NCBI RefSeq assembly: GCF_022919175.1 | Contig: NZ_CP095043.1 | Span: 1,550,001-1,614,000, forward strand | Reading direction: 5' to 3' | Origin: Leucobacter rhizosphaerae | GTDB lineage: Bacteria; Actinomycetota; Actinomycetes; Actinomycetales; Microbacteriaceae | Length of the DNA stretch: 64,000 nt | Shown: piece after piece, positions 4,831-59,730 of the stretch | How positions within the stretch are numbered: the first letter of the stretch is position 1 | How the letters are laid out: the number at the start of each line of letters is the position of its first letter | Made by a program: the position numbers and the translations under genes | Notes under the pieces: model-generated | Databases searched by the model: none | What the model was told of the DNA's origin: nothing | What the model saw: only the letters and a program-made list of their open reading frames with translations

Positions 4831-4882
4831 CACCCCGCCCGAACGGCCCCCGTCGGCCGCGAGGGTCGACCGGAAGGCTCGG

Positions 4883-4968
4883 ACGCCGAGCGCCTCCTTC
4901 CTCGCCGAGCGCCCGCATTCTGAGCGTGCAGAACTGAGGGTCTCGGCAACAAAGGAGGCGCTCGGCGT
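4883..4968. repeat. Long inverted repeat, palindrome family A (copy A1)
   Basis: Arms 4883-4921 and 4930-4968. The outer 17 bp (4883-4899 with 4952-4968, ACGCCGAGCGCCTCCTT) pair perfectly; inner GCCGAG and TTCTG blocks also pair around a short GC loop. It occupies the space between two convergent genes. The 29 bp from 4884 recur with three differences at 43358-43386 and, more diverged, at 44569-44597. Confidence 0.85.
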
Positions 4969-4984
4969 TTCGCCGGACACCCGC

Positions 4985-29850: not shown

Positions 29851-29953
29851 GCGAGATGCCACCGTCTCACCGAGATGCCACCGTCTCACCGAGATGCCAT
29901 CGCAGCGGCGGCGATACCGTGGCATCTCGGTGAGACGGTGGCATCTCAGCGAG
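29851..29953. repeat. Long inverted repeat with duplicated arm (stem-loop element B)
   Basis: The left side carries two exact 19-bp direct copies, CGAGATGCCACCGTCTCAC (29852-29870, 29871-29889), and a partial third (29890-29899). The right side (29919-29947) is the exact complement of 29 bases of that array, so it can pair in two registers. The element lies between convergent genes. Confidence 0.85.
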
Positions 29954-34500: not shown

Positions 34501-34520
34501 AGACATTCCTCCATGAACTT

Positions 34521-34598
34521 TGCGACCCAGGCGAGCGGCCTAAAACACGAGTGTCGTTCCCCGATGGTGTCCCATCTGCACGCCAGTCACGACGCCCA
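34521..34598 (-). ncRNA. ZTP riboswitch (pfl motif)
   Basis: On the minus strand the leader of glyA contains GGGCGTCGTGACTGGCG, then ATGGGACACCATCGGGGAACG, a variable hairpin, and the hallmark GGCCGCTCGCCTGGGTCGC. These match the conserved blocks of the ZTP/ZMP-sensing pfl motif, including the ACUGGCG strand and the CCGCxxGCCUGGG end. It starts a few bases after a TAGGAT -10 and ends 21 bp before the glyA start. It normally turns expression on when the folate-shortage signal ZTP/ZMP accumulates. Confidence 0.88.
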
Positions 34599-34600
34599 CC

Positions 34601-39496: not shown

Positions 39497-39562
39497 CAGT
39501 TGCGGGGTCACTTTGGAGGAGTGTTGCGCAGGCGACACCCCGCGAAAGTGACCCCGCAACTG
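39497..39562. repeat. Long inverted repeat (stem-loop element C)
   Basis: Perfect 18-bp arms CAGTTGCGGGGTCACTTT (39497-39514) and their complement (39545-39562). Further partial pairing continues inside to a small loop near 39529. It lies between the convergent APC permease and birA genes. Confidence 0.85.
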
Positions 39563-42576: not shown

Positions 42577-43269
42577 ATGTCAGGCTCGGTCACTCAGGCG
42601 CAGGAGCAGCTTCGCGCGCTCCTGCAGCGGGGCATCACCCTCGACATCGCCGCCCAGGGCGGCCTCGGCGACACCCCGGTGCGCCGATCCTCCGTGCTCA
42701 TCCTCTTCGGGGCGCTCGATCGCACCCCCGCGGTCGATGCCCGCTCGGTCCAGACGATCCCGCCCGAGCTCGACGTGCTCCTCACCATGCGCGCGGCAGG
42801 AATGCGGCATCACGCCGGCCAGATCGCCTTCCCTGGTGGGGGCGCGGAGCCGGAGGACGCCGATGTCGCCGCGACCGCGCTTCGCGAGGCGACCGAGGAG
42901 ACCGGGCTCGATGCGAGCGGGGTCGAGGTGCTCGGCGCATTGCCGGAGGTGCACATCCCGGTGAGCAACAACCTCGTCACCCCGGTCGTCGGCTGGTGGA
43001 CCCTTCCGAGCGAGATCGCCGCAGACTCCGTCGAGTCGGTCGAGGTGTTCCGGGCGCCGGTCGCGGAGCTGCTGGATCCGTCCGCGCGCGGCACGTCGGT
43101 GCTGGATCGGGGCGGGATGCACTTCCGCGGCCCGGCGTTCCGGCTCGGACCCCGCTTCGGCGGTCAGGTCGTCTGGGGCTTCACCGGGATCCTGCTCGCG
43201 ACACTCTTCGACGAGCTGGGGTGGGCCGTGCCCTGGGACGCGTCGCGGGAGTTCCCCGTGCGGCCGTAG
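42577..43269 (+). CDS. CoA pyrophosphatase-like Nudix hydrolase (NudL type)
   Basis: 230-residue Nudix enzyme. The Nudix box is GGGAEPEDADVAATALREAT followed by EETGL, conforming to GX5EX7REUXEEXGU. Immediately upstream, LLTMRAAGMRHHAGQIAFPG matches the UPF0035/CoA-binding motif that distinguishes CoA pyrophosphatases. It would cleave CoA and its derivatives to acyl-phosphopantetheine and 3',5'-ADP. A leaderless promoter precedes it. The neighbouring acyl-CoA carboxylase genes fit a role in CoA turnover. Confidence 0.88.
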   Translation: MSGSVTQAQEQLRALLQRGITLDIAAQGGLGDTPVRRSSVLILFGALDRTPAVDARSVQTIPPELDVLLTMRAAGMRHHAGQIAFPGGGAEPEDADVAATALREATEETGLDASGVEVLGALPEVHIPVSNNLVTPVVGWWTLPSEIAADSVESVEVFRAPVAELLDPSARGTSVLDRGGMHFRGPAFRLGPRFGGQVVWGFTGILLATLFDELGWAVPWDASREFPVRP

Positions 43270-43357
43270 TCGGGCCACCCCGATTCCCTCGCCGCCGCTC
43301 GCCTCGCCTCGCCACCCTTCCCCGCCCACGCCGCGGCTCCCCCTCCCCCCCCCGTTT

Positions 43358-43439
43358 CGCCGAACGCCTCCTTTCACGCCGAGCGCTACCCACATGCGCG
43401 CGCACTTCGCAGGGTCTCGGCGAGGTGAGAGGGGCTCGA
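43358..43439. repeat. Inverted repeat, palindrome family A (copy A2)
   Basis: Partial palindrome: CGCCGAG (43378-43384) pairs with CTCGGCG (43416-43422), with weaker outer pairing. Bases 43358-43386 match copy A1 at 26 of 29 positions and copy A3 at 26 of 29, and the TGCGCGCGCA core and AGGGTCTCGGC right arm also recur. It lies upstream of the DUF559 gene, in the largest gene-free stretch of the window (43270-43562); the remaining bases there show nothing else. Confidence 0.75.
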
Positions 43440-43562
43440 GGTACCTGGCCGCGCGGGTCGCATCTGCAGAGGCATCCGCTCACAGCGGCGTGTCAGGGCC
43501 CATCGATCCACATGGAACCGGTTCGGGCTCCGTTCCGCACGCGTTTGGGCTTCACTCGAACG

Positions 43563-44555
43563 ATGACCCCCGATCACATCGACACCGTCGCGCAGCACAT
43601 CAGAACGATCGATGCGTATCTGCGCGAGGGCGTTTCCCGCCGTGACATCGCTCGGCGACTCCGCGCGAAGACGTGGCGTCGGGTCGGGAAAGGAGGAGTC
43701 GTGCCGACCTCCGTCTGGGATCAGTGGTTCCCCCACCAGCGTCATCTTGCACGGGTGATCGTCGCTTCGCGAGAAACTCGAAGTCGACCCGTGTTCTCCC
43801 ATCAGTCGGCAGCGGCACTGCTCGGGAGTCCGATCTGGCAGTTCGAAGATGCTGCTCCACACATCATTTCCTCCTCCGCGCACGGCCGCACCCCGACGCT
43901 GGTAAGGCACCAGTTCGCAGTGGACGAATGCGATGTCACGGAGATCCACGGGTTTCGGTGCACGGCGCCGGAGAGGACCCTGGTCGACCTCTCAACGACG
44001 CACACCCGCCCCGAACAACTCCTCACGTTCGCGGATTCGATTCTCGCCCGACACGCACGACGCGAACGACGGGTCGATCGTGAGGCGACGGAACTGTGGC
44101 GCTTGGCAATGGAGAAGCGCCTCCGCGCCGCCCGCGGGCAACGAGGCGTGAGACTCCTTCGAAGCGTCGTCAGCTTCGCGGACGCGCGATCCGATTCGCC
44201 ACTCGAAAGCACCAGCCGTTGGCGGTTCCACGAGTTCGGTATTGCCGTGGAACCCCAATATGCCGTGCCGTCGCCTCGCGGCGTGTGCTACTTCGTCGAT
44301 TTCCATCTCTCTGGACGTGCAATCTTCGGCGAGTGCGATGGGCGGAGCAAGTATCTGGACCCGAACCTTCGAGGAGGTCTGAGCCCCGGCGAAGCCATGC
44401 TCGAGGAGAAGCGTCGCGAGGACTGGATCACCGCGACCACCGGCAACCGATTCATCAGGTGGGGCGTCCCAGAAGTCTCGACGCCAAAACGCTTCGGCGA
44501 GATGCTGCACGCCTTTCGTATCCCACTCGATCCGCCGGGGCGCCGACTCTGGTGA
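43563..44555 (+). CDS. DUF559/Vsr-fold nuclease with AbiEi-like N-terminal region
   Basis: 330-residue protein of the actinobacterial DUF559 group. The N-terminal half (IDAYLREGVSRRDIARRLRA, VFSHQSAAALLGSPIWQFED, GFRCTAPERTLVDLS) resembles AbiEi-type antitoxin proteins, a helix-turn-helix followed by a beta-rich region. The C-terminal part has PD-(D/E)XK nuclease features: Glu215 in SPLES, Asp246 in YFVDFHLSG, Glu257 and Asp259 in FGECDG, Lys263. It has no adjacent AbiEii-type toxin. Codon use is less GC-biased than neighbouring genes, suggesting transfer. Two direct copies of palindrome family A flank it. ATG 43563 is used; ATG 43512 is possible. Its role is unknown. Confidence 0.75.
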   Translation: MTPDHIDTVAQHIRTIDAYLREGVSRRDIARRLRAKTWRRVGKGGVVPTSVWDQWFPHQRHLARVIVASRETRSRPVFSHQSAAALLGSPIWQFEDAAPHIISSSAHGRTPTLVRHQFAVDECDVTEIHGFRCTAPERTLVDLSTTHTRPEQLLTFADSILARHARRERRVDREATELWRLAMEKRLRAARGQRGVRLLRSVVSFADARSDSPLESTSRWRFHEFGIAVEPQYAVPSPRGVCYFVDFHLSGRAIFGECDGRSKYLDPNLRGGLSPGEAMLEEKRREDWITATTGNRFIRWGVPEVSTPKRFGEMLHAFRIPLDPPGRRLW

Positions 44556-44568
44556 TGGACGATACGTG

Positions 44569-44640
44569 CGTCGAACGTCTCCTTTCTCGCCGAGCGCCTC
44601 CGAAGTGTGCGCGCAGATCAGGGGCGTTCGGTGGAGGGGT
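44569..44640. repeat. Inverted repeat, palindrome family A (copy A3)
   Basis: Bases 44569-44597 match copy A2 at 26 of 29 positions in the same orientation; the TGTGCGCGCA core follows. The right arm is more diverged (GGGGCGTTCGGTGGAGG). It starts 14 bp after the DUF559 stop, so A2 and A3 bracket that gene as direct repeats about 1.2 kb apart. Confidence 0.75.
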
Positions 44641-44678
44641 TGCGGGCCAGCGGCGCGGCGGCACTCACGGCGCCTCGC

Positions 44679-45335
44679 CTACGCGTGGGTCGCGGTGTCG
44701 TCCGGGAAGACCGTGTCCAAGTCGCCCAGCTGCAGCGCGAGCGCCGTCGCCTGCGCCGCGTCCTCGAGGTTGAGCGCACGGCGGTACGCCATCTGCACAT
44801 CACCGGCCACGACCGAGCATCCGTGGTGCTGCATCACGACGCAGTCGTGATCGCGAAGCGCCTCTGCGGCGGTGTCGGCGAGTTCATCGGTGCCGTTGTG
44901 GAAGAACGGGGTCACCGCGATCTCGCCCAGGTAATAGGCGTGATCGAGCGTGAGGCGCCGGATCGGCCGCCCGAGACTCGCCAGCACCACGGCGGTGCGC
45001 GGGTGCAGGTGCAGCACGCACTCGGCGTCGGGACGCGCGCGGTAGGCGCGGTGGTGCAGCTTCCATTCGCTCGATGGTTCCGGCCCGACATCGACCGGCG
45101 CACCGGTCTCGTCGTCGTCCAGGGTCAGGAGCGCAAAGCTCTCGGGGGTGAGACGATCCAGCCAGCTGCCCTTTGCCGTCACCAGGAACTCGCGCTCGGA
45201 GACCCGGACCGACAGGTTGCCGGCGCTCGCGAGCACGAGCCCGCGGCCCACCGCGTCGCGCCCGACGGCGATGAGCTCGTCGACGAGGCGTCCGCGATCC
45301 CGCGTCCCGCGATCCCGAATCCGTGTGCCACTCAT
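44679..45335 (-). CDS. Class II aldolase/adducin family protein
   Basis: 218-residue zinc aldolase of the fuculose/rhamnulose-phosphate aldolase family. Key elements: GLVLASAGNLSVRV (substrate loop), LVTAKGSWLDRLTPESFALL, the catalytic Glu in SSEWKLHH, zinc ligands in HLHPRTAVV, and the third ligand in VVMQHHGCSVVAGDVQMA. It would cleave or form a 2-hydroxy-3-keto bond producing dihydroxyacetone phosphate, or act as a decarboxylase-type relative. ATG 45335 shares one base with the stop of the dGTPase gene, so it is translated after it. The pairing with a dNTPase has no obvious metabolic logic. Confidence 0.87.
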   Translation of the reverse strand: MSGTRIRDRGTRDRGRLVDELIAVGRDAVGRGLVLASAGNLSVRVSEREFLVTAKGSWLDRLTPESFALLTLDDDETGAPVDVGPEPSSEWKLHHRAYRARPDAECVLHLHPRTAVVLASLGRPIRRLTLDHAYYLGEIAVTPFFHNGTDELADTAAEALRDHDCVVMQHHGCSVVAGDVQMAYRRALNLEDAAQATALALQLGDLDTVFPDDTATHA

Positions 45336-46981
45336 CAATGATCTCCCCCGCTGAGCGCTCGATACGTCGTGATGGCCTGCTGATCGCTGAACGAGGAGAC
45401 GTAGTCGAGGATCGCCCGCGTGCGCCCCTGCCGCACGAGACCCGCGTCGCTGACATCGCCGCTCAGCAGCTCCGGACGGTCGCGGCGCAGTTCAAAGGTC
45501 GCCTCGGTCGCCTCGTCGATCCACTCGACCAGGCGGCGCGGCGCGCGCACCGCGTCGGCGGGATCATCGAGCCACTCCTCGAACCCGAGCGCGAGCCCGG
45601 CCACGATGCGGGCGCGACCCCGCTGCGGCTGCCCGAGCTCGGGACGCTCCAGCACGAAATGTGCGTGCACGAACTTCAGCACCATCACCTCGTGCCAGGC
45701 CTGCTGGTTCAGTCGCACGTGCCCGCTCCGTACGTGCGGGTGCGCCTCGACCACGATCGAGGTGCGGAGGTGCTCGATCCATCGCCGCGTGAACCCCGAC
45801 ACGGCGCGCTCGCTCTCGATCCCGCCGTCGTAGGGCACCGCGAGCAGCGCATCGCCGATCTCGTCGCTCACCCGCTGCACCGCCGCCGCGAAGGCGTCGC
45901 GGTCCGCGATCCAGCCGTCCTTGAGCCGGAGGCGACGCCACAGCAGCTCGAGCGCGCAGCCGGGAGCGAGCCACCGGGTCGCCGGATCCGGCAGGGACAT
46001 CTCGGCGAACTCCGCGGCACCGTCGAGCCAGGCCCGGAACTCCCCGGAGACGGCCGCCTGCTGCAGCACCCCCGCGCGGGTGAAGTCGTCGAGGTCGTGC
46101 ACCGCGTACGCGATGTCGTCGGCGAGGTCCATCACGGCGCACTCCACCGTCTGCACACCGCGGCCGATGTTCGGGAACGCGGCGAGCGCCTCCGCCATCT
46201 CCGGGGCGTCGAGCGCGTAGGCGGAGAACTTCTCGGCGCCGCCCACAACATCGTCGCCCACCCCGCGCGGCCGCTCGGTCACGGAGATCTCGTCGAGGCT
46301 CGTGCCGATCCACTCGGCCCGGGTCCACGGGTACTTCAGCGTCGCCGCGCGCACCGCGGCGGTGAGGTTCAGGCCCGGGAAATCGCGTCCGAGCGTATCC
46401 AGCTGCGTCACGATCCGGAACGTCTGCGCGTTGCCCTCGAACCCCTCCGCGAGCCCCAACCGCTCGCGCGCGACTCGGTCGAGCACCCGCTCGCCGAGGT
46501 GCCCGAACGGCGGGTGACCGAGGTCGTGGGCGTGCGCGGCGGCCTGGACGACGATGGTGTCGCAGCCGCCGAGCCGAGTGACGATGGCTCCCACGGCGTC
46601 GTCCTCGCTCCGCTCGCCCCGCGCGAACTCGGCGTGCCGCGTCGCGTGCCCCGCGAGCTGCGACGCGATTACGCGGGCGACCGCACTGACCTTCAGGGAG
46701 TGCGTGAGCCGGTTGTGCATGACGGGCCCCACGCCGGAGCGCGGCACCACCTGGGTGACATCCGAGAGTCGCGCGAAGTACGAGGAGAAGCGGAGGCGCT
46801 CGAGGTCGATGCGAAACGCCTGCGGATCCCGCGGCGGCACCGTGCCCGACGACTCGAGGTCGAGATCCGGGTCGCCCGCGGCCGCCGAGCGGTGCTGGGA
46901 GACCTCTCGCTCCGCATAGCGCCGGGACTCCCGGGTCACCCGCGTCTCACTCCCCACGCCGCACCGCACTCGTCCCCGCAT
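45335..46981 (-). CDS. Deoxyguanosinetriphosphate triphosphohydrolase-like protein (dGTPase)
   Basis: 548-residue HD-domain dNTP triphosphohydrolase that cleaves dNTPs to nucleoside and triphosphate, controlling pool size. Diagnostic parts: VVPRSGVGPVMHNRLTHSLK with the first His ligands, AAAHAHDLGHPPFGHLGE (the HD pair), GFEGNAQTFRIVTQLD, and CAVMDLADDIAYAVHDLDD with the metal-binding Asp. GGAGG precedes two candidate starts, GTG 46984 and ATG 46981; the ATG is used. It is longer than minimal dGTPases because of a C-terminal helical extension seen in actinobacterial members. Confidence 0.9.
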   Translation of the reverse strand: MRGRVRCGVGSETRVTRESRRYAEREVSQHRSAAAGDPDLDLESSGTVPPRDPQAFRIDLERLRFSSYFARLSDVTQVVPRSGVGPVMHNRLTHSLKVSAVARVIASQLAGHATRHAEFARGERSEDDAVGAIVTRLGGCDTIVVQAAAHAHDLGHPPFGHLGERVLDRVARERLGLAEGFEGNAQTFRIVTQLDTLGRDFPGLNLTAAVRAATLKYPWTRAEWIGTSLDEISVTERPRGVGDDVVGGAEKFSAYALDAPEMAEALAAFPNIGRGVQTVECAVMDLADDIAYAVHDLDDFTRAGVLQQAAVSGEFRAWLDGAAEFAEMSLPDPATRWLAPGCALELLWRRLRLKDGWIADRDAFAAAVQRVSDEIGDALLAVPYDGGIESERAVSGFTRRWIEHLRTSIVVEAHPHVRSGHVRLNQQAWHEVMVLKFVHAHFVLERPELGQPQRGRARIVAGLALGFEEWLDDPADAVRAPRRLVEWIDEATEATFELRRDRPELLSGDVSDAGLVRQGRTRAILDYVSSFSDQQAITTYRALSGGDH

Positions 46982-59652: not shown

Positions 59653-59730
59653 CGCTCCTGCAGAGATCTGCACTCCTGCTGAGCTTCTGGGGCGATTCGG
59701 TCAGCAGAAACGCGGATCTCTGTCTGAGCG
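59653..59730. repeat. Long inverted repeat (stem-loop element F)
   Basis: 30-bp arms 59653-59682 and 59701-59730, about 24 of 30 positions paired, including CAGAGATC and CTGCTGA blocks, around an 18-bp loop. Weaker pairing extends to 59747. It lies between the convergent MetY-type and panB genes. Its AGATCTG/TCAGCAGAAACGCG segments resemble parts of elements E and D. Confidence 0.75.

What the first reader, a model, noticed from the sequence alone, without database searches (positions are those of the whole stretch)
43358..44640. DUF559/Vsr-fold nuclease gene bracketed by direct copies of a palindromic element
Two ~75-85 bp palindromic elements (A2, A3) lie on either side of the gene in the same orientation; their first 29 bp match at 26 positions. 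A third copy (A1, 4883-4968) with a perfect 17-bp outer stem stands alone 38 kb away. The gene encodes an AbiEi-like N-terminal part and a nuclease-like C-terminus (Glu215, Asp246, Glu257, Asp259, Lys263), lacks a toxin partner and has less GC-biased codons than its neighbours. By analogy with REP/RAYT pairs, the protein might recognise, cut or spread the palindrome. That link is inference; the copies and the layout are seen directly.
Basis: partly seen in the sequence, partly recalled or inferred. Interest (0 to 1): 0.78.

Follow-up and report, generated by a model that had tools for sequence, protein, structure and literature searches.

The report
Nuclease genes bracketed by matching palindromes
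Genes of an unstudied bacterial family that look like DNA-cutting enzymes are often sandwiched between two copies of a palindromic repeat private to that gene, in several cases also scattered elsewhere in the genome, which may be a new kind of selfish two-part mobile element.

Summary
In this Leucobacter genome family A has 19 detected places; the only two within 8.9 kb of each other bracket the gene. The product is a predicted two-domain protein: an AbiEi-like DNA-binding half and a Vsr / EDxHD-homing-endonuclease-fold half whose active-site residues are invariant in all 30 aligned proteins. Relatives are often bracketed too: 37 of 58 loci in Microbacteriaceae, against 5 of 556 control blocks, those 5 being tandem coding paralogues. 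The palindrome is private to the gene: three of six other paralogues here are bracketed, by three other families, two of them dispersed to 25 and 17 places. Palindrome and protein co-diverge (Mantel r 0.42, 0 of 2000 permutations); 20 of 22 loci with a tandem period have 19 bp. A sister-species pair shows the whole cassette present or cleanly absent. I read it as a REPtron-like selfish unit built on a restriction-fold nuclease, not a RAYT. Binding, cutting and movement are inferred. Ten searches of open-access papers listed no description.

The parts
43354..43444 (.). Element A2, family-A palindrome upstream of the gene (decayed copy; orientation ambiguous)
   Evidence: covariance model 78.2 bits on -, 68.4 on + (A2 is among the sequences that built the model); 81% direct match to A3 over 47 nt
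43563..44555 (+). Gene of the two-domain protein, 330 aa (a start at 43512 giving 347 aa is also possible: database copy P0001 has 347 aa): AbiEi-like N-terminal half, Vsr/EDxHD-fold nuclease C-terminal half
   Evidence: open frame; relatives; model pLDDT 94 and fold matches
44566..44656 (+). Element A3, family-A palindrome; begins 10-13 bp after the stop codon
   Evidence: 78.5 bits; loop sequence close to that of the other copies, 2 mismatches
4881..4971 (+). Element A1, solo family-A copy with an intact hairpin
   Evidence: 85.1 bits; fold z -6.8
29853..29947 (.). Solo copy of the palindrome family of paralogue G000:178457 (two units 19 bp apart plus an inverted arm)
   Evidence: 3 arm matches with 3 mismatches each; shuffles mean 0.01
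39504..39555 (.). Solo copy of the palindrome family of paralogue G000:2764733
   Evidence: 2 arm matches with 2 mismatches each; shuffles 0
59660..59723 (.). Solo copy of the palindrome family of paralogue G000:2980794
   Evidence: 1 exact arm match, shuffles 0; a diverged right arm read
42577..43269 (+). NUDIX hydrolase, left neighbour (marks the insertion site; not part of the cassette)
   Evidence: Pfam NUDIX 3.6e-12
44679..45338 (-). Class II aldolase, right neighbour (marks the insertion site; not part of the cassette)
   Evidence: Pfam Aldolase_II 2e-43

Best explanation
The gene and its two flanking palindromes form one selfish cassette, analogous to a REPtron but built on a different enzyme. 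Shown: the cassette layout, its recurrence in the family, the private palindrome of each bracketed gene that was compared within a genome, dispersed solo copies for the families that were searched, co-divergence of protein and palindrome, the 19-bp unit geometry, and clean presence/absence of one whole cassette. Inferred: the AbiEi-like half binds the units of its own palindrome (AbiEi proteins bind arrays of inverted repeats), and the Vsr/EDxHD-like half nicks or cuts there. Repair of the break then copies the palindrome into new intergenic places (solo copies) and lets the whole cassette spread or persist by homing-like recombination. The two copies beside the gene delimit the unit and may also repress it.
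Against: 21 of 58 relatives fail the bracket test, although at least L143 is a false negative. Three own-genome paralogues, including the one most like the window protein (1022311, 44%), show no bracket. Best orientation is 19 direct and 18 inverted, so no fixed end geometry. Only 18 of 37 matched pairs have a copy that folds much better than shuffles (z below -3), 11 have both. For pairs of proteins with relative score under 0.5 the co-divergence is weak (r 0.13). The empty site in G200 has no element and I saw no target-site duplication. Gene-less G200 keeps a solo element at a site shared with G207. No binding, cleavage or movement was observed. No relative in the plasmid, phage or viral collections.
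Confidence: 0.6

Rival explanations
1. Operator arrays of an AbiEi-like regulator. The palindromes are binding sites through which the protein regulates itself and, at solo copies, other genes; nothing moves.
For: AbiEi and Rv2827c autoregulate through arrays of inverted repeats (PMC7319586, passages); an element lies just upstream of the gene; repeated-unit geometry; 15 of 16 family-A elements examined are intergenic by a crude ORF caller.
Against: An operator does not need a matching downstream copy 10-13 bp after the stop; family-A places are not at matching sites in L. musarum except, clearly, the gene locus; an intact nuclease active site is conserved; the one family searched across the genus is confined almost to this species (3 of 54 genomes).
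Confidence: 0.17
2. REP-like hairpins, spread by some other enzyme, act as insulators or terminators, and this gene family simply tends to sit between them.
For: Elements are mostly intergenic; by a crude ORF caller 6 of the 11 family-A sites with both neighbours called lie between convergent genes, a usual place for terminators and REPs (recalled).
Against: The pairing is specific to gene and paralogue; displaced blocks and NUDIX loci show no such bracketing except tandem coding paralogues; in the window the bracketed interval holds only this gene.
Confidence: 0.12
3. A defence-type nuclease that uses the palindromes as self-marks or as a decoy, so elements and gene are kept together for host benefit.
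For: REase-fold nuclease; the AbiEi half matches PADLOC AbiEi models (1.3e-10).
Against: No methylase or toxin gene among the two direct neighbours; patchy presence at one site; a private, species-specific palindrome per gene is odd for a host-selected mark.
Confidence: 0.08
4. Chance or composition artefact of a GC-rich genome.
For: Single copies A2 and A3 do not fold better than shuffles.
Against: 0 of 147 window blocks and 0 of 25 NUDIX loci pass; 0 reversed-pattern matches; bracketing in three species at one site.
Confidence: 0.01

Closest known systems
REP / RAYT units (REPtrons) and TIRtrons
   Same: An enzyme gene bracketed by copies of a palindromic repeat that is also dispersed as solo copies; some families particular to one enzyme (PMC3733652, passages).
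   Different: The enzyme is AbiEi-like plus a Vsr/EDxHD-fold nuclease, not an HUH tyrosine transposase; the family-A consensus has no GTAG tag; arms often built of 19-bp units; 17-25 places per family here, while REPs usually exceed 100 copies per genome (PMC2817692, abstract start in listing).
EDxHD homing endonucleases (I-Bth0305I) and free-standing homing endonuclease genes
   Different: No intron or intein seen; the putative target is a multi-copy palindrome private to each gene and present on both sides of it; the empty site that I could read does not contain the palindrome.
Vsr-like / DUF559 / REase_MTES_1575 proteins
   Same: C-terminal fold, and Pfam matches of the paralogues.
   Different: The Caulobacter DUF559 protein VsrA is discussed as a mismatch-repair nuclease linked to a cytosine methylase (PMC12907096, passages); that text holds no word beginning 'palindrom'.
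AbiEi antitoxins of type IV toxin-antitoxin systems
   Different: No AbiEii toxin beside the gene; a nuclease domain is joined on; repeats lie on both sides and are dispersed.

Membership tests
REP/RAYT (REPtron) | Enzyme is an HUH single-tyrosine (Y1) transposase | tested here: not met
   No His among the invariant or nearly invariant columns of 30 aligned proteins; both halves assigned to other folds
REP/RAYT (REPtron) | Gene flanked by copies of a palindrome that is also dispersed in the genome | tested here: met
REP/RAYT (REPtron) | Palindrome tagged by GTAG at one end | tested here: not met
   neither GTAG nor CTAC in the family-A majority consensus; other families not tested
EDxHD homing endonuclease | Catalytic-domain fold | tested here: met
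EDxHD homing endonuclease | Cuts the cassette-free allele at its insertion site | not testable with these tools
   needs purified protein; a cassette-free allele exists in G200
Pfam DUF559 (PF04480) | Match above the curated cut-off | tested here: not met
   window protein: 0 Pfam families at E up to 1; paralogue 2980794 is above cut-off
AbiE type IV toxin-antitoxin | Antitoxin gene adjacent to an AbiEii nucleotidyltransferase toxin | tested here: not met
   neighbours are NUDIX and Aldolase_II
AbiE type IV toxin-antitoxin | AbiEi fold (wHTH plus second domain) | tested here: met
Insertion sequence with target-site duplication | Short target duplication at the cassette ends | tested here: inconclusive
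   none seen in one present/absent pair about 84-87% identical at DNA level

The most novel reading that the evidence does not exclude
A new class of bacterial selfish element: a restriction-fold, homing-endonuclease-like protein with an AbiEi-type reader domain co-evolves one-to-one with its own palindrome, often built of 19-bp units. It cuts at that palindrome, spreads it as REP-like solo copies through the chromosome, and spreads its own gene between two copies. Several independent pairs coexist in one genome, and the class is widespread in Actinomycetota. It would give REP-like repeats a second, non-RAYT enzymatic origin.
Probability: 0.5. Interest if true: 0.92.

Novelty: categorically new. 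Interest (0 to 1): 0.85.

Why it matters
It gives a testable role to a family of lone AbiEi/DUF559-like genes (123 of 199 Microbacteriaceae genomes searched have a relative). [quoted passage not shown] It also supplies many natural candidate protein-site pairs for sequence-specific nucleases, because a bracketed gene carries its own putative target on both sides.

Tried and rejected
Rejected: family A as a two- or three-copy curiosity (19 places). Rejected: a one-genome oddity. Rejected as support: pattern hits in G240 about 1.1 kb apart, which have no such gene between them as far as I could see from the open frames. The five control positives are tandem coding paralogues: CNNM/CBS transporter-like pairs in L180 (both), L186 and L191, and an alpha/beta hydrolase region in L189 (Pfam of six of the frames; the second L186 and L189 frames were judged from the aligned letters only). 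The match at single-domain L264 is a short palindrome that looks like parS (recalled, not searched); I do not count it as support. Weak covariance hits in other Leucobacter genomes (44 bits and less) were not used as evidence of co-occurrence. Tandem repeats in the NUDIX-aldolase gap of some gene-less relatives are not family A. Rfam at its gathering cut-offs: only a ZTP riboswitch in the window. Plasmids, phages, viral contigs: no relative.

Dropped rows: of the 30 NUDIX loci, the own one (L113) and L119, L135, L136, L139 were left out of the NUDIX control (two carry the gene, two are short contigs), leaving 25. L203 was too short, L274 too short. In the phylum count of 28 scored loci, I counted the 15 with a frame of 282-434 codons; L259, whose frame I could not place, ten-odd single-domain-sized ones (1 passing, L264) and three with frames over 500 codons (0 passing) were set apart. 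Loci tested are the best-scoring relative of each genome, not a random draw; the named loci overlap the Leucobacter genomes. Thresholds differ between calls (z>6; z>=8 and score>=20; the count uses the latter). assumes a 330-codon gene when placing the start.

Full report
WHAT WAS CHECKED. The window lies at C1:1550001-1614000 of a 3.34-Mb single-contig genome. Genus-level relatives retrieved by name are mostly Leucobacter; the L. musarum CBX152 contig there has the same length and gene position as G220:C98. A2 and A3 are real: 81% alike over 47 nt, 26 of 29 positions at the start, 0 in 100 shuffles for the shared pattern. A1 is an intact hairpin (z -6.8), while A2 and A3 alone fold no better than shuffles (z -0.7, -0.3).

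FAMILY A IN THE GENOME. Aligning 14 copies gives a consensus of two 19-bp-spaced units per arm inverted around a conserved loop; a consensus written from it folds as one nearly perfect hairpin. A covariance model finds 36 hits on the two strands, that is 19 distinct places, of which 14 built the model (150 of 7,050 candidates scored). By a crude ORF caller 15 of 16 examined places are intergenic. The closest two places are A2 and A3 (1,212 bp apart, start to start); the next closest pair is 8,975 bp apart. So the only near pair among the detected places encloses this gene.

SAME SITE, OTHER SPECIES. NUDIX matches occur in 52 of 54 Leucobacter genomes; 30 loci were fetched. The nuclease gene follows NUDIX in 3 of the 30: this genome, L. 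musarum (58% identical) and G207 (51%). In all three the covariance model finds an element on both sides of the gene, in G207 only at 31-35 bits. A tree of NUDIX plus carboxylase puts G200 as sister of G207 (100/97) and rejects a clade of the three carriers (AU p 4e-5; at least 3 changes). G200 has no match to the protein at E<=0.001. Its aldolase and NUDIX flanks align with G207 at 84-87% DNA identity, and the 1,656-bp array-element-gene-element-array block of G207 is replaced by 24 bp. No element or target duplication is visible at the empty site. Of six G207 element sites outside the cassette, one matches one of the three G200 sites examined, so solo elements can exist without the gene.

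THE PATTERN IS GENERAL. I compared the 500 bp on each side of each relative with each other, against shuffles. With z>=8 and score>=20, 16 of 30 Leucobacter loci and 21 of 28 loci in other Microbacteriaceae pass: 37 of 58. Controls: 0 of 147 window blocks, 0 of 25 NUDIX loci, 5 of 384 displaced blocks in the named loci; those 5 are tandem coding paralogues. A partly overlapping set of named loci under a looser threshold gives 23 of 40 against 1 of 153. Failures are not all true negatives: L143 (L. musarum) fails, yet the model finds both its elements. Many of the matched flanks are long hairpins (25 loci shown), but by a shuffle test on the matched segments only 18 of 37 pairs have at least one copy with fold z below -3, and 11 have both. 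Among DUF559 genes elsewhere in the phylum, 6 of 15 with a two-domain-sized frame pass.

EACH BRACKETED GENE HAS ITS OWN PALINDROME. Of 6 other paralogues in this genome, 3 are bracketed, each by a different palindrome (z 14.8 to 17.4), and 3 are not. The palindrome of gene 2980794 has 44 arm matches at 25 places and that of gene 2764733 has 27 at 17 places, with 0 matches for the reversed patterns. Over 54 Leucobacter genomes a shortened form of the first pattern occurs in 3: 47 arms here, 6 in G240, 1 in G201. The third paralogue's palindrome was not searched genome-wide; it has a copy in the window. In four other genomes with two or three bracketed paralogues the palindromes are unrelated (cross-scores 7.0-11.0; 10 of the 19 loci in that call are bracketed). 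Across 37 loci, palindrome similarity follows protein similarity (Mantel r 0.418, 0 of 2000 permutations), and the own partner is the best match in 35. For pairs with relative protein score under 0.5 the correlation is weak (0.13), so palindromes turn over fast. Although sequences differ, 22 of 37 loci have a significant tandem period in the repeat and 20 of these include 19 bp.

MOVEMENT. Family A has 17 places in L. musarum. Comparing flanks of the 19 places here with those regions, only the gene locus is clearly shared (one further partial match hits two places in one region, looks like coding paralogy, and was not verified). Next to A3 the aldolase is 96% identical between the two carriers G000 and G220, against 82-83% to G207 and G200, while three other neighbours show no such excess. 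At DNA level the raised identity (88-92%, against 62-88% for the eight other relatives in the same windows) spans about 44701-45200. This looks like a recombination tract ending at the cassette, as homing would leave, but it is one case, and the nuclease gene itself is only 58% identical.

MECHANISM. AbiEi and Rv2827c bind two or four inverted repeats of 23 bp (PMC7319586, passages). I-Bth0305I dimerises on a target of nearly 60 bp (PMC3943268, passages). A protein joining both kinds of part, beside an array of inverted units, most simply binds that array and cuts there. That step, and the spread by repair, are inferred. The operator rival explains the upstream copy and the unit array but not the downstream copy, the private dispersed families or the conserved active site.

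COMPARISON. In layout this is a REPtron (PMC3733652, passages), but the enzyme is unrelated and no GTAG tag is present in family A. I call it categorically new because neither the enzyme nor the repeat belongs to the known kind, while saying plainly that the layout is analogous. Searches of open-access papers for DUF559 with palindrome, AbiEi with DUF559, RAYT with palindromic, DUF559 with endonuclease and mobile, Vsr with homing endonuclease, I-Bth0305I, REP with Actinobacteria and endonuclease, AbiEi with inverted repeat, MTES_1575 (passages of PMC3710099 seen), and a mixed set listed no description in the titles and abstract starts shown; most preprints and subscription papers were not searched.

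AFTER CHECKING.

Noticed in passing
window 34518-34600 (-): ZMP/ZTP riboswitch (RF01750), 58.9 bits.
   Followed up: no
window 29853-29947, 39504-39555, 59660-59723: Solo copies of three other paralogue-specific palindrome families, so the window holds members of four families.
   Followed up: partly
window 44701-45200: Aldolase segment 88-92% identical to L. musarum against 62-88% for eight other relatives: a likely recombination tract abutting A3.
   Followed up: partly
L124, L125, L137: gap between NUDIX and aldolase: Other short tandem repeats fill this gap in gene-less relatives; the gap seems to attract repeats.
   Followed up: no
L066 and L283, both sides of the gene: Long arrays of repeat units (22-bp period in L066; a repeated motif of about 17 bp in L283) replace the simple hairpins.
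   Followed up: no
G240:C35:14214-19554 (L333): Palindromes resembling the 2980794 family in another Leucobacter MAG, with no nuclease gene seen between them.
   Followed up: partly
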